Positions 14,507 to 53,928 of a DNA stretch of 64,000 nt are shown in pieces. Source of the DNA: Thermoprotei archaeon (lineage in GTDB: Archaea > Thermoproteota > Thermoprotei > Gearchaeales > WAQG01); contig JAVZOV010000001.1 of the NCBI GenBank assembly GCA_038881895.1, positions 434,001 through 498,000 on the forward strand, given 5' to 3'. The position numbers were made by a program, and so were the translations under genes. The first letter of the stretch is position 1. Each line of letters starts with the position of its first letter. Under the pieces are notes generated by a model. That model was not told where the DNA came from, did no database searches, and saw only the letters and a list, made by a program, of their open reading frames with translations.

Positions 14507-14516
14507 GGGTTCTGAA

Positions 14517-15728
14517 CTAAATATGGATATGTATGGATTCCATACTTAGTTCTTGAGCCTCATCCCTCTTGTCCTCCTCTGGGTTCATTGGAGGGCTCAT
14601 CGAGCTCTGCTCCCTTCGGGGTGAACCCATGAATCCCCACATCCTAAGGAACGTTTTCCAAATGTTTATTGATGCATTCTTCTGCCTATCGATTATAAAA
14701 CCGCACCTAGGGCACTTGAAGACCCCTCCTCTTAGGTCTTTATTATAATACCCGCATTTGGAGCAGGTCTTCGAGGTGCCCTTCGCATTCACATATATGG
14801 TAGCATAACCATTCCACGCAGATTTGTATTCCACGTACTTTTGCAGTTTGATGTAGTCGTGCTTGCTGTTCTGCCTGTTCATGCTCCTACTCTTCGTCCT
14901 AGCCACCCTCTCCTTGAACCCCCTCAGGTCCTCGAAGACGTTTGTCCTGCCTGAGAGCTGCTTGGCCAGCTTGTGCAGCGCGTCGTCAACCCTGTTCCTC
15001 TCCCTCGAGCGGTACTTCTCCAGGAGCCTCTTCCTCGTTTTTCCATGTAGCTTTTGGGTGACTCTTCTCTTCAGCTCGTAGATCCTGTGGATGGTGTAGA
15101 TCTCCTTCAGGTCTATGGAACAGTGATCCCGGCCGTCGAAGCCGTCCAGGGATAGGAGGTTCGTGTCCCAGGCAATCGAATTTTCGACCTTCAGCCCCAC
15201 CCTCTTCCTGACCGTCACCAGGAGCCTGTCCTGTTTGAGTATGAGTTCGCCGAGCTCCAATCCCCTTATCCTATCCCAGCACCACGTCTTCCTCAAATCT
15301 ACGGTCACGCTTTCTTCGTAAGGTTTCACTGAAATCCTGAGAATTCCATCCCTGTAGCTGTAGAGGGTTTCCTTAACTCTAACGAACTTTCTCCTCAGTT
15401 CAGGCTTTCTTCTTCCAGCCCGCCCACGTAGATATCTTTTCCTCCACGATTCAAGCACGGAATAAGCCTGCTTTATCGCGGAGTCCACGTAATGCTTGGA
15501 GTAAAACCAACCTTTAAGGTACTTGTCCCTAAGCTCCTTCCTGAAGGTCTTGTCCTTCCTAGGAAACGGTATAAGCCTCTTACCCCTTCTTTCCCATGCT
15601 ATGTTCCTCCATAAGTCATCCAAGATAGCGTTTAAGATGCGCATGTAGTCCTCTATGAGCTCACTTACCTCAAGGTTATGCGGTATCGAGTACGCTTTAA
15701 CCAACAAGGTTCCTGACACCTTCAACAA
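14517..15728 (-). CDS. tnpB: TnpB of IS607-derived group 2 element
   Basis: A 403-residue TnpB, the RNA-guided nuclease family ancestral to Cas12. RuvC residues are visible as Asp in 'IAWDTNLLSLDGF', Glu in 'NVFEDLRGF' and Asp in '[13 protein letters not shown]'; the zinc ribbon is TCSKCGYY...FKCPRCG. All look intact. The start is TTG behind GGGAGG (a GTG nine bases on is an alternative) and overlaps the upstream HTH gene. The 3' end runs into the right-end hairpin, where the guide RNA scaffold of such elements normally lies. Confidence 0.88.
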   Translation of the reverse strand: MLKVSGTLLVKAYSIPHNLEVSELIEDYMRILNAILDDLWRNIAWERRGKRLIPFPRKDKTFRKELRDKYLKGWFYSKHYVDSAIKQAYSVLESWRKRYLRGRAGRRKPELRRKFVRVKETLYSYRDGILRISVKPYEESVTVDLRKTWCWDRIRGLELGELILKQDRLLVTVRKRVGLKVENSIAWDTNLLSLDGFDGRDHCSIDLKEIYTIHRIYELKRRVTQKLHGKTRKRLLEKYRSRERNRVDDALHKLAKQLSGRTNVFEDLRGFKERVARTKSRSMNRQNSKHDYIKLQKYVEYKSAWNGYATIYVNAKGTSKTCSKCGYYNKDLRGGVFKCPRCGFIIDRQKNASINIWKTFLRMWGFMGSPRREQSSMSPPMNPEEDKRDEAQELSMESIHIHI

Positions 15729-15939
15729 CCTCCCTATACTTATGGGACCTCATGCCTACGATAATTCTTTCCTCTCTTAAACCGAGGATTCGTTTTATTT
15801 CGCTCTCAGGGATCTTCTTGCGTCCTCCAAGTGTTCTAACACACCTAATCTTACCTTGTTTATCCCATTGCTGAATAGTCCAGGTGGTGACTCCAAGAAG
15901 CTTCTTCGCCTCCTTGATTGTATAGAGCTTTTCGGACAT
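15697..15939 (-). CDS. HTH-only remnant of IS607 TnpA
   Basis: About 80 residues: a MerR-like helix-turn-helix ('YTIKEAKKLLGVTTWTIQQW' then 'TLGGRKKIPESEIKRILGL'), followed by 'EERIIVG', where the IS607 serine recombinase domain would begin (usually IVGYARVS), and then an unrelated short tail. The catalytic domain is gone. I choose ATG 15939, preceded by an AGGAG ribosome site and conserved in the derivative at 51680, over the longer frame from 15975. It overlaps tnpB by 32 bases. Confidence 0.82.
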   Translation of the reverse strand: MSEKLYTIKEAKKLLGVTTWTIQQWDKQGKIRCVRTLGGRKKIPESEIKRILGLREERIIVGMRSHKYREVVEGVRNLVG

Positions 15940-15994
15940 CAATATTCTCCTATATCTACCAATATTTAAACACATCTATTTTGAAACTGCTGAA

Positions 15995-16353
15995 AAAGGC
16001 GTCTTGGGTTGAAATTTGTATGTATAGTACTTAATGACAATGCGTAGGGAATGATTAAAGCTGGGCAAACATTATTTTATAAGAAACGATATGTAGGTGT
16101 TGATTTCAATGATACTAGATATGATAAAATTGCTGAAGCTATGGGTTGCTATGGTGAGCGAGTCATAGAACCTTCAGAAATTAGACAGGCTCTTGAAAGG
16201 GCAGTAAATTCTGGATTGCCAGCAGTATTGGATGTAAAAATTGATGGAAACATAATACCTCCCGACTTTGAATTATTAGCAGCTATTTGGTTAGAAGGCT
16301 GTGAAATACCTCCCAAGATTTCGAGTGAAGAAATTGTAATAGAAAAATCCTAA
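15995..16353 (+). pseudogene. Thiamine-diphosphate enzyme, C-terminal fragment
   Basis: The C-terminal end of the enzyme whose start is at 14182. In one frame it reads 'FVCIVLNDNA', a TAG stop at 16045-16047, then 'GMIKAGQ', 'KIAEAMGCYGERV' and 'LPAVLDVKIDGNIIPPDFE', matching the cofactor-binding C-terminal domain of acetolactate synthase-like proteins. About 340 residues of the middle are missing altogether, so deletion accompanied or followed the insertion. The stop replaces the usual Leu/Tyr of the 'NxxLGM' motif. Confidence 0.85.
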
Positions 16354-27484: not shown

Positions 27485-27640
27485 TATCGCCGTTGTCAGC
27501 GTTTTCAAAATAGACATGTTTTATGTTGATCTCATATATTTGTATGATGTTTGAAACCTGTCCCATCTGCTCTGAAAGCCGTGGTCAACAGTTTTGGAAT
27601 AGATAGGTTTAAATATTTGTTCAACTCTATTAACTCTTTG

Positions 27641-27826
27641 ATGGAAGAAGAACTACTTAGACCAAAGGATGTTGCAAAGATATTCAACATCTCAGTTAAG
27701 ACTCTCTGGGAGTGGCAAAGGAAAGGCATTATTAGAGCAGTTAAACTTCCAACTGGCAAGCTCCGCTACCCGAGGAGCGAGGTTGAGAGATTATGGAGGC
27801 AATTAAAAGCTATAGAATTCCAGTAG
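27641..27826 (+). CDS. HTH-only IS607 TnpA derivative, copy A
   Basis: 61 residues consisting only of a MerR/excisionase-like helix-turn-helix: 'LLRPKDVAKIFNISVKTLWE' then 'LPTGKLRYPRSEVERLWRQL'. In IS607 TnpA this domain is followed by a serine recombinase, which is absent here. I start at ATG 27641 because the left-end TTTAAATA box is 25-33 bases upstream; the longer frame from 27551 would read through the left end. The last 34 bases also encode the start of TnpB. Confidence 0.82.
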   Translation: MEEELLRPKDVAKIFNISVKTLWEWQRKGIIRAVKLPTGKLRYPRSEVERLWRQLKAIEFQ

Positions 27827-28947
27827 ATGTTCCAAAAGATTTAATCGAAGAATACTTCAAAGTTAAGCGGAAGGCTTTAGACGCAATATTCTCACACGTT
27901 AAAATTTCTAAGAAGGCTCACCTCGAATTCGATAAGAAGGATAGGAGAGAGCTTAGGGATGAACTGCTACGGGAGTGGAAATACTCAAAGCATTACGTTG
28001 ATTCAGCAATGAACTCCGTTATCGGATTGGTTAAGGGCTGGATAACCCTTTATAATAGGGGGAGGGCGAATGAGCCTCCTAAGATAACTAAGAGGACAGT
28101 CTACATTAAGAGCACGCTCTTCAGCTTCAGAAACGGCATACTGAAGATAAGCGTAGAACCGAACAAACGTTATCTTGAGGTTGACTTGAGTGAGTGTTCG
28201 TGGATTCCAAAAGACTTTGATAAAGTCGGTGGACTACTTATGACTGAAAGTGAGCTGATAATCGTGATTAAAAAGGAAGTGGAGCTGAAAGCGGAAGGTT
28301 GGGCTTCCTTCGATGTTAACTTAACGAACGTGACGGCGTTCATAGACGGGAAAATAGAGCGATATGACTTTAGGGGGCTTTACCACATTCACAGAACCTA
28401 TGAGGTAAAGCGGCAGAGGATACAAAAGTTATCTAAGATTAAGCCCAATGCATCAAAGAGACTATTGGAGAAGTACTCTAAGCGTGAGAAGAATAGAGCT
28501 AAAGACTTCATGCACAAACTAACCACGCAGGTTGCGGGGAAGCTCAAGGAGAAGAACTGCGGAGCAATACTTGAAAACCTGAAAGGTGTAAAGGGGCGAA
28601 TCCTCAACGGCTCAAGGAAAAATAATAGAAAGCTCTCAAAGTGGAGCGCAAGAGCATTCCAACTCATGCTCGAATACAAGCTTAAATGGCTTAACTTACC
28701 AACAAAATACGTTAACCCAGCCAACTCATCTAAAACCTGCCCAGCCTGCTCAGGAAGCATGGCTTCCTATCTGGGCAGGATAATGAAGTGCGAAGAATGC
28801 GGATTAGCAATGGATAGGGATGTTGTAGCGGTATTGAACCTTCAGATGCGGGGAATTGGGTTCTCCCCGAGAGCCCCCGATGAGCTAATCGAGGGGGAAG
28901 GGTTAAGTAGGAATGAAAATAACAATTCACTATGCATTCCTACTTAA
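27793..28947 (+). CDS. tnpB: TnpB of group 1 element, copy A
   Basis: 384 residues. RuvC residues are present as Asp in 'ASFDVNLTNVTAF', Glu in 'AILENLKGV' and Asp in 'LAMDRDVVAVLNLQ'; the zinc ribbon is TCPACSGS...MKCEECG. The protein ends inside the right-end hairpin, so its 3' coding region and the guide RNA scaffold overlap, as in characterised TnpB systems. Nearly identical over long stretches to copy C. Expected to be an active RNA-guided nuclease. Confidence 0.9.
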   Translation: MEAIKSYRIPVDVPKDLIEEYFKVKRKALDAIFSHVKISKKAHLEFDKKDRRELRDELLREWKYSKHYVDSAMNSVIGLVKGWITLYNRGRANEPPKITKRTVYIKSTLFSFRNGILKISVEPNKRYLEVDLSECSWIPKDFDKVGGLLMTESELIIVIKKEVELKAEGWASFDVNLTNVTAFIDGKIERYDFRGLYHIHRTYEVKRQRIQKLSKIKPNASKRLLEKYSKREKNRAKDFMHKLTTQVAGKLKEKNCGAILENLKGVKGRILNGSRKNNRKLSKWSARAFQLMLEYKLKWLNLPTKYVNPANSSKTCPACSGSMASYLGRIMKCEECGLAMDRDVVAVLNLQMRGIGFSPRAPDELIEGEGLSRNENNNSLCIPT

Positions 28948-29166
28948 CTCAGAACCCTAACTTCATATAGGAGCAGGTTGATGAGGTGTGGAAAACTTCG
29001 AATGTGTAGATTCATGGGTTCACACTGAAAACCCTCCATGAAACGTTAACGCAGAGAAGGAAGAACTAAGTATGGATATGTATGGAATCTCCATACTTAG
29101 TATTAGAAACTTCCATATAAGTTGTTTTACGAAAATTTTGGATGAGATATTGCTGATTATCTAGCT

Positions 29167-36801: not shown

Positions 36802-37999
36802 TCAAAACTTAGAAACATCAATTCTTCTGCAGAGGGTTCTGAGTTGAGTAGGAATGCATAGTGAATTGCTATTTTCATTCCTACTTAACCCTTCCCCCTC
36901 GATTAATTCGTTGAGGGCTCTCGGGGAGAACCCAATTCCCCGCATCTGAAGGTTCAACACCGCTATGATATCCCTATCCATTGTTAACCCGCATTCTTCA
37001 CACTTCATTATCCTGCCCAGATAGGAAGCCATACTTCCGGAGCAGGCTGGGCAGGTTTTAGATGAGTTGGCTGGATTAACGTATTTTGTTGGTAAGTTAA
37101 GCCATTTAAGCTTGTATTCAAGCATGAACTGGAACGTCCTCGCATTCCACTTTGAGAGCTTTCTGTTCATGTCTTTAGACTTGTTGAGGATTCGCCCCTT
37201 TACACCTTTCAGGTTTTCAAGTATTGCTCCGCAGTTCCTCTCCTTGAGCTCCCCCGCAACCTGCGTGGTTAACTTGTGCATGAAGTCCTTGGCTCTATTC
37301 TTCTCACGCTTAGAGTACTTCTTGAGGAGCATCTTTGATACATTGGGCTTAATCTTAGATAACTTTTGTATCCTCTGCCGCTTAGTTTCATAGGTTCTGT
37401 GAATATGGTAGAGCTCTCTTAAGTCATAGCACTTAATCTCGCCACCTATGAACGCCGTTATGTTCGTTAAGTTAACATCGAAGGAAGCCCACTTCTCAGC
37501 CTTTGGCTCAACCCTCTTCTTAACCGTAATTATCAGCTCCTTCTCAGTCATAAGTAGCCCACCGACTTTATCAAAGTCTTTTGGAATCCACGAACACTTA
37601 CTTAAGTCGACCTCAAGATACTGCTTATTAGGCTCAATGCTTACCCTCAGTATACCATTTCTGAAGCTGAAGAGCGTGCTCTTAATGTAAACGGTTTTTT
37701 TTAGTTATCTCAGGCTTACCTTCAGCTTTCCCCTTGTTATAAAGGGTTATCCAGCCCTTAACCAATCCGATGACGGAGTTCATTGCTGAATCAACGTAAT
37801 GCTTTGAGTATTTCCACTCTCGTAGCAGTTCATCCCTAAGCTCTCTCCTATCCTCAGCTTTCAAGTTAAGGTGGGCCTTCTCGGAAATTTTAACGTGTGA
37901 GAAGATTGCGTCTAAAGCCTTCTGCTTAACTTTGAAGTATTCTTCGATTAAATCCTTCGGAGCCTCTACTGGGACCCTGTAGCTCTTAACTACCTCCAT
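36802..37999 (-). pseudogene. tnpB: tnpB of group 1 copy B, frameshifted
   Basis: Residues 1-105 read from 37999; the remainder continues in another frame from about 37690. The cause is visible: an A run of eight (minus strand, at 37693-37700) where copy C has seven. RuvC residues and the zinc ribbon downstream remain intact (ASFDVNL, AILENLKGV, TCPACSGS, MKCEECG). The normal stop TAA has become CAA in the right-end hairpin, so the frame runs about 14 codons into flanking DNA. Confidence 0.85.
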
Positions 38000-38214
38000 A
38001 GCCTCTCAACCTCGCTTTTGGGATAGCGGAGCTTGCCAGTTGGGAGTTTAACTGCTCTAATAATGCCTTTCTTCTGCCACTTCCAGAGCGTTTTAACTGA
38101 GATACCGAACTTCTTTGCGACATCTTTTGGTCTAAGTAGTTCTTTTTCCATCAAAGAGTTAATAGAGTTAAACAAATATTTAAACCTATCTATTCCAAAA
38201 CTGTTGACCACGGC
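36834..38214 (-). mobile_element. IS607-derived element, group 1 copy B (damaged)
   Basis: Minus-strand copy with the group left end (GTCAACAG at 38201-38208, then AATAGATAGGTTTAAATA) and right end (CAGAACCC, read as GGGTTCTG at 36834). Both genes carry damage: an early stop in the HTH gene and a frameshift plus lost stop in tnpB. The flank at 38272 holds another IS605 relic. Confidence 0.85.
37990..38151 (-). CDS. HTH-only IS607 TnpA derivative, copy B
   Basis: 53 residues: 'LLRPKDVAKKFGISVKTLWK' and 'LPTGKLRYPKSEVERLWR'. A TAG replaces the Gln codon found at this point in copies A, C and D, shortening the protein by about eight residues, but the whole helix-turn-helix remains. Overlap with the tnpB start is therefore 10 bases rather than 34. 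Start chosen at the ATG about 30 bases from the left-end TTTAAATA box. Confidence 0.75.
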   Translation of the reverse strand: MEKELLRPKDVAKKFGISVKTLWKWQKKGIIRAVKLPTGKLRYPKSEVERLWR

Positions 38215-40160: not shown

Positions 40161-41404
40161 GTAAGGCAACTGTTTCTAAATAGATAGATTTTTATAGACG
40201 TTTAGTGTATACTCTATTTGTGGAAATAGTCCTCAGCGTTCCATTCGTTTATGAAGTGAACGACGAAGTTAGAAAGCTCCTAGAGGACTTCAGAGATATG
40301 GTGAACTTCTGCATAGGCTTTGCAGTTGAGAGGAGGATAACCTCTTACGCTAAACTTAGGAAGAGCGTTTATGAAGAGTGGAAGGGGAGGTGGGATTACT
40401 CTACACATTTTTGCCATTCAGCATGTAAAATAGCCTTAGCCATGCTCAAGAGCTTTAGGAGGCTTAAACGTAAGGGATTAGCTAAAGGTGATAGACCTGA
40501 GGCTAGAAAGCTCTTCATGCAACTCGACCCGCAACTGTACAAGTTCTACGGCGATAGGATCAGAATATCCGTTAAGCCCAGAAGATTTCTCTTCATAGAT
40601 TTGAAGTACGGTGAATATCAAAGAAGATTTATAGATGCTTGGAGAGAGGGGAAGCTGAGGACCGGCGAAATCACCATAAACGAGACGAAGATAATCGTAC
40701 CGTTCAAGAAGGACGTAGACCTGTCCAATCCAAGCGACTGGATAGCAATAGATGTTAACGAGTCTAATGTCACTGGAGTAAGCACGAACCCACACGTCAT
40801 GAGGGTTGAAAGCAACTTGAGGACGATCCACACGACCTACTTCAATATCATCAGAAGAATCCAAAGGTTGAAGAAGTTTAAGCCCAAGACTGCTGAGGAA
40901 CTGCTTAAGAAGTATTCTGGTAGAAGGAAGCGCAAGGCTAAAGATGAATGTCACAAAATATCTAGAAAGATCGTAGACTTTGCCAAGCGACATAAAGTTG
41001 GTGTAATAATGGAGGACCTCAAAGGAATTAGAAAAAGAATCAATTTCTCCAAGAACCTCAACCGCAGATTGCACTCATGGAACTTCAGGAGGCTGCAATC
41101 CTACATTGAATATAAGGCTAAACTTGAAGGTTTGCCAGTCGTATACGTCAATCCTAAAAACACTTCAAGCCTATGCCCGATGTGTGGCGGCAGGCTAGCG
41201 CCGAATGGGTATAGGCTCGTGAAATGTGAATGCGGTTACGAAAGCGATAGAGACGTGACCGCGTGCTTAAACATGCTCAGGATGAGGGGAGCCCCGTTGC
41301 CCCAGAAAGCCCTCTATGAGCCTCAAATAATCGAGGTGAGAGGGAAGGGACGAAAGTCTATGAATCCCACAACGGTAATTCAACTATGCATAAAACCAAT
41401 ATGA
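40161..41404 (+). mobile_element. Solo tnpB element related to IS607 (copy E)
   Basis: Left end 'GCAACTGTTTCTAAATAGATAG' (40165-40186 region) followed by TTTTTATAG aligns with the left end of the group 1 elements, but the HTH gene is absent and tnpB begins about 30 bases later. I cannot find the CAGAACCC right end, so the 3' boundary is taken as the tnpB stop. Confidence 0.55.
40205..41404 (+). CDS. tnpB: TnpB, diverged, without an HTH partner (copy E)
   Basis: Up to 399 residues, clearly different in sequence from groups 1 and 2 but with the same order of motifs: Asp in 'IAIDVNESNVTGV', Glu in 'VIMEDLKGI', zinc ribbon CPMCGG...VKCECG and Asp in 'YESDRDVTACLNML'. The frame opens with GTG 40205; GTG 40220 is about 27 bases after the TATA-like TTTTTATA and may be the real start. 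It is expected to retain nuclease activity. Confidence 0.85.
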   Translation: MYTLFVEIVLSVPFVYEVNDEVRKLLEDFRDMVNFCIGFAVERRITSYAKLRKSVYEEWKGRWDYSTHFCHSACKIALAMLKSFRRLKRKGLAKGDRPEARKLFMQLDPQLYKFYGDRIRISVKPRRFLFIDLKYGEYQRRFIDAWREGKLRTGEITINETKIIVPFKKDVDLSNPSDWIAIDVNESNVTGVSTNPHVMRVESNLRTIHTTYFNIIRRIQRLKKFKPKTAEELLKKYSGRRKRKAKDECHKISRKIVDFAKRHKVGVIMEDLKGIRKRINFSKNLNRRLHSWNFRRLQSYIEYKAKLEGLPVVYVNPKNTSSLCPMCGGRLAPNGYRLVKCECGYESDRDVTACLNMLRMRGAPLPQKALYEPQIIEVRGKGRKSMNPTTVIQLCIKPI

Positions 41405-46112: not shown

Positions 46113-46323
46113 TTAGTCCACCAAAATCTTGGTATTTTTTAAGAATTTAAATTTGTCGTTATATTCGATGAAACTAAACAATGACAAAAATTATTCCTAA
46201 AAATGCTGGAGATCTTTGGTTTGTCATAGATTTCTGCTCATTGTATCGAGTTTGGGCTGTGCCGTTGTCAGCAGTTTCTGAATAGATAGGTTTAAATAGA
46301 GGTTGATTACTTTATTCTTAACG

Positions 46324-46518
46324 ATGTCTGGAGATTACGAAGAACTGCTTAGACCAAAAGATGTTGCAAAGATATTCAACATCTCAGTTAAGACTCTCTG
46401 GGAGTGGCAGAGGAAAGGCATTATTAGAGCTGTTAAACTTCCAACTGGCAAGCTCCGCTACCCGAGGAGCGAAGTTGAGAGGCTATGGAAGCAGTTAAAA
46501 GCTACAGGATCCCAGTAG
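46324..46518 (+). CDS. HTH-only IS607 TnpA derivative, copy C
   Basis: 64 residues: a short 'MSGDYEE' head, then the same helix-turn-helix as copy A ('LLRPKDVAKIFNISVKTLWE', 'LPTGKLRYPRSEVERLWKQL'). The head differs from copies A, B and D, showing this copy is an older or separate sub-branch. No recombinase domain follows. Overlap with tnpB is 34 bases; the ATG is about 30 bases after the left-end TTTAAATA box. Confidence 0.82.
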   Translation: MSGDYEELLRPKDVAKIFNISVKTLWEWQRKGIIRAVKLPTGKLRYPRSEVERLWKQLKATGSQ

Positions 46519-47633
46519 AGGCTCCAAAAGATTTAATCGAAGAATACTTCAAAGTTAAGCAGAAGGCTTTAGACGCAATATTCTCGCACGTTAAAATTTC
46601 CAAGAAGGCTCACCTTAACTTGAAAGCTGAGGATAGGAGAGAGCTTAGGGATGAACTGCTACGGGAGTGGAAATACTCAAAGCATTACGTTGACTCAGTA
46701 ATGAACTCTGTCGTAGGACTTGTTAAAAGCTGGATAACGCTCTATAACAAGGGGAAAGCTGAAGGTAAGCCTGAGATAACTAAAAAAACCGTTTACATCA
46801 AGAGCACGCTCTTCAGCTTCAGAAACGGTATACTGAAGGTAAGCATTGAGCCTAATAAGCGGTATCTTGAGGTTGACTTGAGTAAGTGTTCGTGGATTCC
46901 AAGAGACTTTGATAAAGTCGGTGGGCTACTTATGACCGAGAGGGAGTTGATAATCGTGATTAAAAAGGAGGTGGAGCTAAAAGCGGAAGGTTGGGCTTCC
47001 TTCGATGTTAACTTAACAAACATAACAACTTTCATAGACGGGAAGATAGAGCGATATGACTTAAGAGAGCTTTACCACATTCATAGAGTTTATGAGGTAA
47101 AGCGGCAGAGGATACAAAAACTCATGAAGTTTAAGCCGAAGACCTCTAAAAAACTCCTCAAAAAGTACTCTAAGCGTGAGAGGAATAGGGCTAAGGACTT
47201 CATGCACAAACTAACCACGCAGGTTGCGGGAGAGCTCAAGGAGAAGGACTGCGGAGCAATACTTGAAAACCTGAAAGGTATAAAGGGGCGAATCCTCAAC
47301 GGCTCAAGGAAAAACAATAGAAAGCTCTCAAAGTGGAACGCAAGAGCATTCCAGTTCATGCTCGAATACAAGCTGGAGTGGCTTAACTTACCAGTGAAAT
47401 ACGTTAACCCAGCTAACTCATCTAAAACCTGCCCGGCCTGCTCTGGAAGCATGGCCTCCTGTCTGGGCAGGATAATGAAGTGCGAAGAATGCGGGTTAAC
47501 AATGGATAGAGATATCATAGCAGTGTTGAACCTTCAGATGCGGGGAATTGGGTTCACCCAAAGAGCCCTCAACGAATTAATTGAGGGGGAAGGGTTAAGT
47601 AGGAATAAAAGCAACATATGCATTCCTACTTAA
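46485..47633 (+). CDS. tnpB: TnpB of group 1 element, copy C
   Basis: 382 residues, near-identical to copy A over long stretches, with RuvC residues in 'ASFDVNLTNITTF', 'AILENLKGI' and 'LTMDRDIIAVLNLQ' and zinc ribbon TCPACSGS...MKCEECG all intact. The most different part from copy A is the segment 'LMKFKPKTSKKLLKK'. Like copy A it ends within the right-end hairpin. Confidence 0.9.
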   Translation: MEAVKSYRIPVEAPKDLIEEYFKVKQKALDAIFSHVKISKKAHLNLKAEDRRELRDELLREWKYSKHYVDSVMNSVVGLVKSWITLYNKGKAEGKPEITKKTVYIKSTLFSFRNGILKVSIEPNKRYLEVDLSKCSWIPRDFDKVGGLLMTERELIIVIKKEVELKAEGWASFDVNLTNITTFIDGKIERYDLRELYHIHRVYEVKRQRIQKLMKFKPKTSKKLLKKYSKRERNRAKDFMHKLTTQVAGELKEKDCGAILENLKGIKGRILNGSRKNNRKLSKWNARAFQFMLEYKLEWLNLPVKYVNPANSSKTCPACSGSMASCLGRIMKCEECGLTMDRDIIAVLNLQMRGIGFTQRALNELIEGEGLSRNKSNICIPT

Positions 47634-47861
47634 TCCAGAACCCAATCTAGCTCCATAACTCACTTGTATGCTCATTGCACTATTTTTAGTTTAGAAGACC
47701 TCTAAACCACATCCCTAGCAACTTGCTTGGATTAAGAAATACCAATAGCTGTTTAACCTTTTGGCAATTTATGGTTAAAACTGTAGGCTCTCTTGCTGAG
47801 CTCTTGTAATTTATGGTTTTGTGAGGGTATCATTTATATAATTTGATTATTTTATAATCAT

Positions 47862-48486: not shown

Positions 48487-49416
48487 TTATTCTAAATACT
48501 GAGGTGGGACCTGTTTAAGATTATTTCTGATGGCTTCTATACTCTTCAAGAATTTAGCTTTCTGCTCATCGTTTAGCTTTAATTCTATAATTTTTTCAAC
48601 ACCATTTTTTCCGAGTATTATTGGAACCTCAGCAAAAACATCTTTCACACCATATTCTCCATCAAGATAAACACTAGCTTCAAGCGCAATCTTTTTATCT
48701 TTCTTAATGGCCTCGCACATAACTAGCAATCCTGCACCAGGTCCCCAGTTACTGCTGAATTTTCTTAAGTTAGTTATCTCAGCACCAGCTTGTATAGTCT
48801 TAGTGACCACAGAAGTATATTGGTCAGCTGTTAAAAGTTCGATTAATGGTTTTCCATATGCCATAGACAATTCTGGAACTGGATACATGTTTTCTCCGTG
48901 TTGTCCTAAAACTACTGGAATTATAGAGCGTGGTGCTATGCCTAATACTTGAGACGAATAGAAAGCTAACCTGCTAGAATCTAATATTCCACTAAATCCA
49001 ATAACCCTGCTCCTTGGGAATTTTAGTTTCTTATAAAATACATAGACCATAGCATCTAACGGATTTGTTGTAATAATCGTTATGGCATTAGGAGCGTACT
49101 TTTTAATTTGTTCAGCGACTGTTGAAACGATTTCAGCATTTTTTGCAGCCAACTCTTCTCTAGTCATTCCAGGCTTTCTAGGAAGACCAGCAGTAACTAT
49201 AACTAAATCACTACCAGTCATATCCTCATATTTATTACTACCCTTAACAACTACGGATTTACCCAATATTGCAGCAGCATGATTGAGATCTAATGCTTCA
49301 CCCTGAGGTAGCCCCTCTATAATATCTATAAGGAGTACTTCATTATCAACCTCGTTCATCATTAGAAAAGCTGCTGTTGTCGAACCTACTTTACCGGAAC
49401 CAATTATTGTTATCAT
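48487..49416 (-). CDS. mdh: Malate dehydrogenase
   Basis: 309 residues of the lactate/malate dehydrogenase family. NAD motif GSGKVGS near residues 6-12; substrate loop 'GLPRKPGMTREEL', where the Arg at the specificity position favours malate/oxaloacetate over lactate; catalytic 'GFSGILDSSR' and His in 'LGQHGENMYP'. It reversibly oxidises malate in the TCA cycle. The window also holds isocitrate dehydrogenase, aspartase and the LUD protein, all single genes. Confidence 0.92.
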   Translation of the reverse strand: MITIIGSGKVGSTTAAFLMMNEVDNEVLLIDIIEGLPQGEALDLNHAAAILGKSVVVKGSNKYEDMTGSDLVIVTAGLPRKPGMTREELAAKNAEIVSTVAEQIKKYAPNAITIITTNPLDAMVYVFYKKLKFPRSRVIGFSGILDSSRLAFYSSQVLGIAPRSIIPVVLGQHGENMYPVPELSMAYGKPLIELLTADQYTSVVTKTIQAGAEITNLRKFSSNWGPGAGLLVMCEAIKKDKKIALEASVYLDGEYGVKDVFAEVPIILGKNGVEKIIELKLNDEQKAKFLKSIEAIRNNLKQVPPQYLE

Positions 49417-49535
49417 CTTATATCATCACTATAAGTAGTATAACTTGAGAAATATAAATCTTTGCATAAGTATAGTTATGTATAAAGATAAATTATCAAG
49501 TATATATTAAAAATTAAACATAAATAATAGCATGT

Positions 49536-49916
49536 TTATTTTCTTTTAAGCTTAAAAATATCCGGAAGTAATTTATCAAGAGTTGTCTCTCTTGTTATTC
49601 CTTTATTATTTACCATAATTATCTTAGCATGCGGATTAAACTCTGCAATAACTTGCCTACATGCCCCACACGGTGCTACAGGTTCTTCAGATTCAACAGC
49701 TATTACCACTTCCTCAATTTCTTTATCACCCTCACTAACAGCCTTAAAAATGGCTACACGCTCAGCACAGATAGTAAGTCCATATGATGAATTTTCAACA
49801 TTTACTCCAGTATATATTGACCCTTGTTTTGTTCTTACTACAGCACCAACTTTAAAATTAGAATATGGTGCATATGCATTTTTCACCGCATTCAAGGCAA
49901 TCTCAACAAGATCCAC
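49536..49916 (-). CDS. cdd: Cytidine deaminase
   Basis: 126 residues of the small tetrameric type. Opening 'AYAPYSNFKVGAVVRT', zinc site Cys-Ala-Glu in 'TICAERVAIF' and PCGACRQV, so the three Cys ligands and catalytic Glu are in place. It converts cytidine or deoxycytidine to uridine. The frame is open back to 50156, but the family starts at GTG 49916; the upstream part is divergent promoter DNA shared with the MFS gene. Confidence 0.92.
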   Translation of the reverse strand: MDLVEIALNAVKNAYAPYSNFKVGAVVRTKQGSIYTGVNVENSSYGLTICAERVAIFKAVSEGDKEIEEVVIAVESEEPVAPCGACRQVIAEFNPHAKIIMVNNKGITRETTLDKLLPDIFKLKRK

Positions 49917-50129
49917 AGTCAAACACCACAATAATAAAAAATAATGATACTTATTTGCTTTCCTAAAAGACCTCCTTTCCTTCTGAAGAACAAAAATTTT
50001 TCTGGCAATTACCAGTGCTGTTATTATAATATAAAACTTTTCCTGCTTAAAATGAACAAAAATTGATATTCGATAGTTAGCAAAATCGTGAATTACATTT
50101 ATATATTCTATACTTGTAAGTGCGTTAGC

Positions 50130-51419
50130 ATGAAAAGAAATAATGAGAATATGCATGTGAATATAAATAGTAAAAAAGATAGTACGAATCGTAATATACC
50201 AATGATGATTAAGTTTAATATTGAATTGGGTAAACTATTCCAGGGATTAAACAAAAATGTAATAATATTAATTTTGTTTCTATTAATTCTTTATTTTTCT
50301 TCTGCTTTTATTAACCTAATATATCAACTCTATTTTAAAAGTGTAGGATACTCTGCTTTTTCTATCGGAATACTCAGTACTGTTATGGGCCTCACAGTAT
50401 CAGTATTGCTTATCCCTAGTGGGATTCTTGCAGATATTTTCAATCGAAAAATAGTTATAACTATTGGAAGTTTCATATTATGCACGGGGCAAGTTCTCAT
50501 CTTTGTTTATATGAACTATACTATACAACTGATGGCAATGTTTCTTATCGGATTAGGTTCTGCATTCATTGTTTCTGCAGGTGGAGCATTTATGACTGAG
50601 ATTCTAGATGAAAAGTTTTACGATAAGGGATTTAGCTTTCTATCAAGTGCTCAAGTACTGGCAACTACTATTGCTGGAATAGTGGGCTGGCTTCCCGTAT
50701 ATTTTAATAAAAACCTCCACTATTCTGAAGTCGATTCTTATAAAATTTCAGGACTAATTATGGGCATCATTGGATTTACGTCACTCTTATTTCTATTTTT
50801 AATAAAGGAAATAAAGAAAACTAACCCAAAATCTAGATTAAGTTTAAATTTGTTCAAGGATGACAAAAATTTTATAATGAAATTTGCTTTCATCAATGTT
50901 ATCGTTGGATTGGGCGCTGGATTCTCTATTCCGCTGTTTAATTATTATTTAAGTGTTAAATTTAATGTTGATTCTGGGCCAATCGGAACATTGAATGCTT
51001 TTGCAAGTTTTACAATGATACCGTTATATATAATGATGCCACATATACGTGAATCATTTGGATATCTTCGTGCAATTGTATTGCCTCAGGCATTCTCAAT
51101 TATATTGCTTATGTTAATACCAGTCTCTCCTAATTTCATAGTTGCATCTTTATTTTATATATCAAGACAAGCACTGATGAATATCCCTAACCCTTTAGTT
51201 TCATCTTTTATGATGAGAAATATAAGTCAAAAATCGCGGGCCACCGCTAATGCGATAATCAATATGTCCTGGAGTCTACCAAATTCGATAAGCATACCAC
51301 TAGGTGGTTACATTATGGATAGATACCTGGATTTACCAATTTACATTACTTCAGTTTTTTATATGATCTATGTGATATTGCTCAACTACTTCATTAAAAG
51401 ATATGATCAAAAGATATAA
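50130..51419 (+). CDS. MFS transporter
   Basis: About 429 residues with a hydrophilic, Asn-rich head of 40 residues and about twelve membrane helices. The loop 'SGILADIFNRKIVI' is the MFS signature. Start at ATG 50130, about 27-30 bases after TTTATATA (50099-50106), suggesting a leaderless message. It is related in layout to the other two MFS proteins but not closely alike. Substrate unknown. Confidence 0.87.
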   Translation: MKRNNENMHVNINSKKDSTNRNIPMMIKFNIELGKLFQGLNKNVIILILFLLILYFSSAFINLIYQLYFKSVGYSAFSIGILSTVMGLTVSVLLIPSGILADIFNRKIVITIGSFILCTGQVLIFVYMNYTIQLMAMFLIGLGSAFIVSAGGAFMTEILDEKFYDKGFSFLSSAQVLATTIAGIVGWLPVYFNKNLHYSEVDSYKISGLIMGIIGFTSLLFLFLIKEIKKTNPKSRLSLNLFKDDKNFIMKFAFINVIVGLGAGFSIPLFNYYLSVKFNVDSGPIGTLNAFASFTMIPLYIMMPHIRESFGYLRAIVLPQAFSIILLMLIPVSPNFIVASLFYISRQALMNIPNPLVSSFMMRNISQKSRATANAIINMSWSLPNSISIPLGGYIMDRYLDLPIYITSVFYMIYVILLNYFIKRYDQKI

Positions 51420-51624
51420 TCTGGAGTTCTAGTCTGTATTTGCATGTGTGGATCTTGGTTACCATCATGCTCAATCACCTATAGGGTTTGCCAATGGTTT
51501 GTTATCACTCTCTAACACTGTTGGATCGAACCCACCATCATCTCTCTAACTCCGGTCGGGGGTCATTTATGCGACTTCTCTTGTATGTTTGCTCCTTTTT
51601 GGGCATTCATCACTCCACGCCTAT

Positions 51625-52028
51625 GTCAGCAGTTTCAAAATAGATGTGTTTAAATATTGGTGGGTATAGGAGAATATTGATGTCCGAAAAGCTCTATACA
51701 ATCATTATAAGTCTGCATGGAATGGACACACGACAGTATTTGTTAAGGCTTATGGGACATCTAAGACCTGCTCCAAATGCGGGTATTATAATAAAGACCT
51801 AAGGGGAGCAGTCTTCAAGTGCCCAAAATGCGGACTTGTAATCGATAGACAGAAGAATGCATCAACAAACATTTGGAAAACATTTCTTAGTATGTGGGGA
51901 GTCGTGGGTTCCCCCCCGAAAGGAGCTAACCCCGATGAGTCCTCCAATGAACCCTGAGGAGGACAAGAGGGATGAGGCTCAAGGACTAAGTATGGATTCC
52001 ATACATATCCATACTTAGTTCAGAACCC
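51625..52028 (+). mobile_element. Internally deleted group 2 IS607 derivative (404 bp)
   Basis: Has the same left end (GTCAGCAGTTTC then AATAGATGTG) and right end (hairpin CTAAGTATGGA/TCCATACTTAG, CAGAACCC) as 14507-15994. At 51680 the TnpA start 'MSEKLYTI' is joined to the C-terminal third of tnpB ('[15 protein letters not shown]', 'FKCPKCG'), out of frame. Everything between is deleted. No protein of the original kind can be made, but the ends and the 3' guide-RNA-like region are kept. Confidence 0.85.
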
Positions 52029-53187: not shown

Positions 53188-53250
53188 GCCGTGGTCAACA
53201 GTTTTGGAATAGATAGGTTTAAATATTTGTTTAACTCTATTAACTCTTTG

Positions 53251-53436
53251 ATGAAAGAAGAACTACTTAGACCAAAAGATGTTGCAAAGATATTCAACAT
53301 CTCAGTTAAAACGCTTTGGAAGTGGCAGAGGAAAGGCATTATTAGAGCAGTTAAACTTCCAACTGGCAAGCTCCGATATCCCAAGAGCGAGGTGGATAAA
53401 TTATGGAAGCAATTAAAAGCTATAGAATTCCAGTAG
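53251..53436 (+). CDS. HTH-only IS607 TnpA derivative, copy D
   Basis: 61 residues, nearly identical to copy A, with 'LLRPKDVAKIFNISVKTLWK' and 'LPTGKLRYPKSEVDKLWKQL'. The HTH frame is uninterrupted even though the tnpB behind it is broken. Start ATG about 30 bases from the left-end TTTAAATA box; the longer frame from 53191 would run through the left end. Confidence 0.8.
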   Translation: MKEELLRPKDVAKIFNISVKTLWKWQRKGIIRAVKLPTGKLRYPKSEVDKLWKQLKAIEFQ

Positions 53437-53901
53437 ATGTTCCAAAAGATTTAATCGAAGAATACTTCAAAGTTAAGCAGAAGGCTTTAGACGCAATATT
53501 CTCACACGTTAAAATTTCCAAGAAGGCTCACCTCGAATTCAATAGAGAGAATAGGAGAGAGCTTAGGGATGGACTGCTACGAGAGTGGAAATACTCCAAA
53601 CACTACGTTGATTCAGTACATGCTTGAATACAAGCTTAAATGGCTTAATTTACCAACAAAATACGTTAACCCAGCCAACTCATCTAAAACCTGCCCAGTC
53701 TGCTCAGGAAGTATGGCTTCCTATCTGGGCAGGATGATGAAATGCGAAGAATGCGGGTTAACAATGGATAGAGATATCATAGCAGTGTTGAACCTTCAGA
53801 TGCGGGGAATTGGGTTCACCCCGAGAGCCCTCAACGAATTAATCGAGGGAGAAGGGTTAAGTAGGAATAAAAGCAACAATTCACCATGCATTCCTACTTA
53901 A
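53403..53901 (+). pseudogene. tnpB: tnpB of group 1 copy D, internally deleted
   Basis: The first 72 residues ('MEAIKSYRIPVDVPKDL' to 'KHYVDS') are followed directly by the C-terminal part ('MLEYKLKWLNLPTKYV' onward) in another frame. The join is at about 53617, within 'GATTCAGTACATGCTTGAA'; intact copies have TTCA at both sides of the missing stretch, so deletion by a short direct repeat is likely. RuvC motifs one and two are lost; the zinc ribbon remains. Confidence 0.88.
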
Positions 53902-53928
53902 TCCAGAACCCAATATAATGATACCTAG

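What the first reader, a model, noticed from the sequence alone, without database searches (positions are those of the whole stretch)
27578..28957. IS607-type elements that keep only the DNA-binding half of TnpA beside an intact TnpB
In group 1 (copies A-D) and separately in group 2 (14507-15994) the TnpA gene ends right after its MerR-like helix-turn-helix. The serine recombinase domain is missing, yet the HTH frame is conserved in every copy, overlaps tnpB, and is even kept in copy D where tnpB is broken. TnpB keeps its three RuvC acids and zinc ribbon. Loss in two lineages, with several near-identical copies, suggests a stable HTH-TnpB class rather than random decay: moved in trans, or with the HTH acting as a repressor or end-binding factor for TnpB or its RNA.
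Basis: partly seen in the sequence, partly recalled or inferred. Interest (0 to 1): 0.72.

Follow-up and report, generated by a model that had tools for sequence, protein, structure and literature searches.

The report
HTH-only TnpA kept beside TnpB
Many archaeal mobile elements have lost the DNA-cutting half of their transposase but keep, under strong selection, its small DNA-binding half next to the RNA-guided nuclease TnpB; that leftover piece looks like a self-standing regulator whose probable binding repeats in the element's own promoter are spaced 9 bp apart, instead of the 10 bp seen where the full transposase is present.

Summary
Group 1 (copies A-D) encodes a 53-64 aa MerR/BldC-like winged helix-turn-helix (HTH) overlapping tnpB, with no recombinase. 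The genome holds 26 well-preserved copies (82-94% identical, not near-identical). In the TnpB tree the group-1 clade (36 sequences; Thermoproteota, Asgard archaea, Archaeoglobi and others) contains HTH-only, dead-HTH or HTH-less elements and no full TnpA. The HTH is under strong purifying selection (pN/pS 0.13; TnpB 0.24), so this is not decay. Group 2 differs: a clean in-frame deletion of full-length TnpA genes of the same genome; five short copies share one junction.

Ends are IS607-like (CC/GG core, left end shared with full-length elements), so movement in trans is plausible but unproven. New: HTH-only elements carry 9-bp-period direct repeats between TATA box and start codon, full-TnpA elements 10-bp-period repeats (replicated on held-out elements and after clustering). 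BldC, the closest solved structure by sequence and by fold, binds 9-bp direct repeats head-to-tail. Best explanation: a BldC-like autoregulator of the tnpB operon that binds the left end. DNA binding and repression are inferred, not shown. New variant of the IS607/TnpB kind.

The parts
27579..28957 (+). Group-1 element, copy A, from left CC core to right CC core
   Evidence: core inferred from the L012 insertion and IS607 literature
27608..27615 (+). TATA-like box TTTAAATA in the left end
   Evidence: sequence; conserved in all group-1 and group-2 left ends
27617..27643 (+). Candidate operator: 9-bp direct repeats TTGTTCAAC/TCTATTAAC/TCTTTGATG between TATA box and HTH start
   Evidence: sequence; 9-bp period statistics
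27641..27826 (+). HTH-only protein, 61 aa, BldC/MerR-like (copy A)
27793..28947 (+). tnpB, 384 aa, RuvC acids (FDVN, LEN, MDRD) and zinc ribbon (CPAC..CEEC) present
28896..28957 (+). Right end: hairpin AAGTAGGAATG...CATTCCTACTT then AACTCAGAACCC; likely 3' end of the guide RNA scaffold
   Evidence: sequence; guide RNA role from knowledge of TnpB, no Rfam match
36834..38213 (-). Group-1 copy B; HTH 37990-38151 open (53 aa), tnpB frameshifted
46262..47643 (+). Group-1 copy C; HTH 46324-46518 (64 aa), tnpB 46485-47633 intact
53189..53911 (+). Group-1 copy D; HTH 53251-53436 open, tnpB internally deleted
14507..15999 (-). Group-2 short element; tnpB 14517-15728
15697..15939 (-). Group-2 short TnpA, 80 aa: HTH joined in frame to the last 18 residues of the recombinase
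51620..52028 (+). Group-2 remnant: left end and tnpB 3' part with right end, middle deleted

Best explanation
Group 1 belongs to a long-lived lineage of IS607-derived TnpB elements that dropped the serine recombinase domain of TnpA and kept the HTH as a separate ~60-aa protein. The protein most likely works like BldC: single winged-HTH units bind 9-bp direct repeats head-to-tail, here on repeats between the TATA box and the start codon of its own operon, which is also the transposon left end. This would repress the HTH-tnpB operon and so limit the nuclease. The element itself has no recombinase; movement, where it still happens, would be supplied in trans by full-length IS607 TnpA acting on the shared ends. 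Shown: architecture, phylogenetic spread, purifying selection, shared ends, 9- versus 10-bp repeat period, predicted BldC-like fold. Inferred: DNA binding, oligomerisation, repression, mobilisation in trans. Group 2 is a younger instance: one in-frame deletion of a full-length TnpA that now lives beside its autonomous relatives.
For: No full TnpA in a 36-row TnpB clade, 20 of them HTH-only, in many archaeal phyla (classification). HTH pN/pS 0.13 against 0.24 for TnpB; pS near saturation but pN 0.06-0.12 between phyla for the same HTH type. Short group-2 HTH also 0.13. Fold and sequence closest to BldC, which binds 9-bp direct repeats using the wHTH alone (PMC5859096). 9-bp repeat period in HTH-only left ends, 10-bp in full-TnpA left ends: z 5.9 and 9.0, held-out z 2.7 and 7.6, p 0.002, clustered p 2.6e-4 and 0.017. 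Repeats sit on the expected transcription start. Left ends shared with full-length elements and CC/GG core. Precedent for a MerR-type repressor of a TnpB-derived nuclease: CvkR and Cas12k (PMC9938897).
Against: No binding or expression data. The C-type left end (e.g. copy C, L007, L011) shows no clear 9-bp repeats although its HTH is nearly the same; a few full-TnpA elements (L064, L192, L297, L351) have 9-bp repeats; held-out HTH-only set is small (8). In G101 the HTH is dead in all nine copies examined (shared 16-nt deletion) while the TnpB element multiplied, and HTH-less sister lineages exist, so the HTH is dispensable for persistence. The first sighting of the 9-bp period was exploratory.
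Confidence: 0.5

Rival explanations
1. The HTH is an end-binding helper for transposition: it coats the left end and recruits or assists a full-length TnpA supplied in trans, so it is kept for mobility, not regulation.
For: Left end and CC core shared with full-length elements; TnpA of IS1535 nucleates a filament on directly repeated left-end motifs (PMC6188088); nine intact recombinases in this genome.
Against: Recombinases in this genome have HTHs at most about 40% identical to group 1 and their own left ends have 10-bp spacing; some hosts have no detected recombinase (G137 97%, G201 95% complete); no recent transposition seen.
Confidence: 0.2
2. The HTH is a transposition inhibitor: it occupies the left end and blocks full-length TnpA, protecting the host or the element (truncated-transposase regulator).
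For: HTH-only copies coexist with full TnpA copies, notably in group 2 where short and full forms share the same HTH.
Against: Does not explain retention in genomes with no detected recombinase, nor why the repeats are re-spaced away from the 10-bp period of full-TnpA elements.
Confidence: 0.12
3. The ORF is kept as a leader cistron: on a leaderless mRNA ribosomes must start at the HTH and reach tnpB by the overlap; the protein itself does nothing.
For: TATA box about 30 bp before the HTH start, suggesting a leaderless mRNA; 34-bp overlap with tnpB conserved in many relatives.
Against: A leader needs an open frame, not a conserved sequence: pN/pS is 0.13 outside the overlap and the HTH fold is conserved between phyla.
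Confidence: 0.06
4. Plain decay: truncated TnpA remnants carried along with TnpB, without function.
For: TnpA pseudogenes are common in IS607 loci (30% of TnpAs, PMC11061315); dead HTHs and orphan TnpBs occur in the same clade.
Against: Purifying selection stronger than on TnpB, one architecture across a deep clade, and the repeat spacing.
Confidence: 0.04

Closest known systems
IS607 family (serine TnpA + TnpB)
   Same: N-terminal HTH, overlap with tnpB, CC/GG exchange core, direct repeats in the left end, TnpB with RuvC acids and zinc ribbon
   Different: The recombinase domain is missing in group 1 and deleted in group 2; left-end repeats have a 9-bp instead of a 10-bp period in HTH-only elements
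BldC family of MerR-like regulators
   Same: About 60-70 aa, winged HTH only, no dimerisation domain; best sequence and fold match; 9-bp direct repeats near the promoter
   Different: Archaeal, encoded on a mobile element in front of tnpB; binding and head-to-tail packing not tested
IS1341-type orphan TnpB
   Same: TnpB without a transposase; part of the group-1 clade lost the HTH as well
   Different: HTH-only elements keep a selected HTH gene and an IS607-type left end
CvkR (MerR-type repressor of type V-K CAST)
   Same: MerR-type regulator beside a TnpB-derived effector; leaderless mRNA; repressor
   Different: 150 aa with its own dimerisation domain, palindromic site (PMC9938897)
Non-autonomous IS derivatives
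   Same: Rely on a recombinase encoded elsewhere if they move; short group 2 fits this well
   Different: They keep two selected genes, including an active-looking nuclease

Membership tests
IS607 family | Full-length serine recombinase TnpA with N-terminal HTH | tested here: not met
   Only the HTH in group 1; in-frame deletion in group 2
IS607 family | GG/CC dinucleotide at both termini and at the target | tested here: met
   CC at both ends of the group-1 copies; one insertion read against intact tnpA genes gives target GCC
IS607 family | Directly repeated motifs near the left end | tested here: met
   9-bp period repeats in HTH-only elements as a set; not in the C-type left end
IS607 family | Transposition | not testable with these tools
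   Many copies with different flanks, but no assay
BldC family | Short protein made of a winged HTH without dimerisation domain | tested here: met
   61 aa; AlphaFold2 pLDDT 89; best PDB match BldC, TM 0.77/0.83
BldC family | Binds 9-bp direct repeats head-to-tail | tested here: inconclusive
   9-bp repeats present in left ends; binding not testable here
TnpB RNA-guided nucleases | Three RuvC acids and zinc ribbon | tested here: met
   Sequence of copy A and C; Pfam PF07282/PF01385, NCBIfam guided_TnpB above cut-off for group 1
TnpB RNA-guided nucleases | Guide RNA from the 3' end of the element | tested here: inconclusive
   Conserved right-end hairpin and CAGAACCC; no Rfam family matched
TldR-type nuclease-dead TnpB regulators | Lost RuvC acids | tested here: not met
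   RuvC acids kept in intact copies
CvkR | Dimerisation domain and palindromic operator | tested here: not met
   61 aa, wHTH only; direct repeats instead

The most novel reading that the evidence does not exclude
A recombinase-free class of TnpB elements, spread over several archaeal phyla, in which the freed transposase DNA-binding domain became a BldC-type filament repressor of the nuclease operon, with its binding sites re-spaced from 10 to 9 bp.
Probability: 0.4. Interest if true: 0.75.

Novelty: new variant of a known kind. Interest (0 to 1): 0.62.

Why it matters
How TnpB nucleases are held in check, and how they persist without a transposase, is largely open. This gives a candidate dedicated regulator encoded with TnpB, a defined operator, and a simple prediction (9-bp versus 10-bp spacing). 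It also suggests how a transposase domain can turn into a transcription factor, and it provides natural pairs (short and full group-2 copies in one genome) for testing mobilisation in trans.

Tried and rejected
Rfam gave nothing at the locus. PADLOC: the HTH matches mad1 of MADS, another stand-alone HTH, and TnpB matches Cas12f models; a defence-operon reading was not pursued. Recent transposition in a genome without recombinase was looked for: the two copies of G137 are 85% identical, so no evidence. A left-flank motif (TAM) beyond GCC: no strong preference. A first pN/pS run on group 2 was misaligned and discarded (redone, where only three of five short copies could be used). Searches of the held open-access library found no description of an HTH-only TnpB class; ISfinder and most subscription papers could not be searched.

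Full report
Observation. The four group-1 copies and the group-2 copy are as described, with corrections. Copy A runs from a CC core at 27579-27580 to a CC core at 28956-28957. Its HTH ORF (27641-27826, 61 aa) overlaps tnpB (27793-28947) by 34 bp. HTH frames are open in A-D. tnpB is intact in A and C, frameshifted in B and internally deleted in D. Domain searches find HTH_17/MerR/BldC/IS607 N-terminus and TnpB, no resolvase.

Scale in the genome. The 1.75-Mb genome holds 26 well-preserved group-1 HTH copies plus a few fragments and about 18 near-full-length TnpB copies of the group. The 17 copies with both ends recognised are 82-94% identical, median 89%, each with its own flanks. None is followed by a recombinase. 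Nine intact resolvase ORFs lie elsewhere in the genome; the HTHs of those found are at most about 40% identical to the group-1 HTH.

Group 2 is a deletion product. Full-length group-2 TnpAs in the same genome (about 202-214 codons) read ...RIIVG-YARVSS...FAGKLYG-MRSHKYREVVEGVRNLVG; the short form joins RIIVG to MRSHKY in frame. Five short copies (window, L155-L158) share the junction GTAGGCATGAG and differ by 9-15%. So one deletion spread or was copied among loci. In the three short copies that could be read automatically, the HTH has pN/pS 0.13 and the leftover tail 0.75, on few changes.

Group 1 is an old lineage. Related TnpBs were collected from GTDB genomes and classed by what lies upstream. 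In the TnpB tree the group-1 clade (36 rows, SH-aLRT 99) holds 20 HTH-only, 5 dead-HTH, 7 HTH-less, 4 unclassed and 0 full-TnpA elements. Named hosts include Brockarchaeota, Bathyarchaeota, Wolframiiraptor and Geocrenenecus, Jordarchaeia, Baldrarchaeota and Archaeoglobaceae. Other HTH-only cases (L029/L126/L177; L046/L047; L212; short group 2; new ones) lie elsewhere, so the state arose more than once. It is a quick tree, and counts of change cannot tell gain from loss.

Selection. Over codons outside the tnpB overlap, 26 copies give pS 0.34 and pN 0.045 (ratio 0.13); TnpB in 15 intact copies gives 0.24. Against relatives in other phyla with the same HTH type, synonymous sites are near saturation (pS 0.6-0.9) with pN 0.06-0.12. 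This argues strongly against decay, and against a purely frame-keeping role. The HTH is not indispensable: in G101 all nine copies examined share a 16-nt deletion in the HTH, yet the TnpB element multiplied.

Ends. HTH-only and full elements share a left end of the form GCC....TCAGCAGTTTC.GAATAGATnnGTTTAAATA and, in this genome, a right-end hairpin followed by YCAGAACCC. One copy (L012) sits in a tnpA gene; comparison with intact genes gives the target codon GCC, which fits the GG/CC exchange of IS607 (PMC6188088). TTTAAATA is an archaeal TATA-like box about 30 bp before the HTH start, so the mRNA is probably leaderless (inference).

Repeats. Between TATA box and start codon, HTH-only elements show direct repeats with a 9-bp period: z 6.2 in the first, exploratory look and z 5.9 in 18 nonredundant elements. 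Full-TnpA elements show a 10-bp period in the same place (z 9.0, 21 elements; difference p 5e-5). On elements fetched afterwards and unlike the first set, lag 9 is again best for HTH-only (z 2.7, n 8) and lag 10 for full (z 7.6, n 28), one-sided p 0.002. Averaging within clusters of similar HTHs leaves p 2.6e-4 (75% clusters) or 0.017 (60%); at 50% too few clusters remain to test. The short group-2 elements still have the 10-bp period, as expected of a younger deletion. Exceptions: the C-type left end has no clear repeats, and a few full elements have 9-bp repeats.

Fold. The HTH is modelled with good confidence (pLDDT 89). The best PDB match is BldC, by sequence and by structure (TM 0.77/0.83). 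BldC units bind 9-bp direct repeats head-to-tail with the wHTH alone (PMC5859096).

Mechanism. Together these suggest that the freed HTH binds its own promoter/left end as a small filament and represses the HTH-tnpB operon. The shared ends make transposition in trans possible. Several hosts have no detected serine recombinase (for example G137, 97% complete, and G201, 95%), which suggests the HTH does something besides helping transposition, though assemblies are incomplete. None of this has been tested at the bench.

Novelty. The held literature describes full IS607 elements, TnpA pseudogenes (PMC11061315), TnpB nucleases, and a MerR-type repressor of type V-K CAST (PMC9938897), but no selected HTH-only TnpA beside an active-looking TnpB was found there. 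ISfinder and subscription papers were out of reach, so a prior description cannot be excluded.

Noticed in passing
L005, L029, L031 right ends (compare window 28910-28950): The stretch between the two hairpin arms near the right end is found inverted in some copies (e.g. aatgcatagtgaattgttattttcatt against aatgaaaataacaattcactatgcatt), both in group 1 and in group 2; a flip between the arms.
   Followed up: no
L037 1465-3372 (G000 C3, about 48919-50826): One 635-codon frame holds a serine recombinase domain followed by a TnpB, while the HTH is damaged and lies in a separate ORF; a TnpA-TnpB fusion or loss of a stop.
   Followed up: partly
G000 C1:349274-351047 (L012, L041, L042): A group-1 element is inserted in a tnpA gene on the other strand; used here to infer the empty site.
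   Followed up: yes
L159, L160, L161 and TnpB clade; also window 40205-41404: A deep TnpB clade of 13 rows from several genomes with no TnpA or HTH in any member, including three copies in this genome; the window ORF at 40205-41404 (37% TnpB match) was not itself in the tree.
   Followed up: no
L078, L097 against L118; L083, L094, L101, L058: HTH types differ (about 40-50% identity) between elements whose TnpBs are close, which looks like exchange of the HTH module; the left-end repeat unit changes with it (TTTGG-type in the L083 group).
   Followed up: partly
Brockarchaeota genome G101 (L071-L076, L103, L165-L167): All nine group-1 copies examined share a 16-nt deletion that kills the HTH, plus in-frame TGA codons in most, while TnpB stays open in several.
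   Followed up: partly
G000 whole genome: 80 TnpB-like matches, fragments included, in 1.75 Mb, a high load.
   Followed up: no
window 27641-27826: The HTH also matches mad1 of the MADS defence system in PADLOC (E 1.5e-11), another stand-alone HTH of about 60 aa.
   Followed up: no
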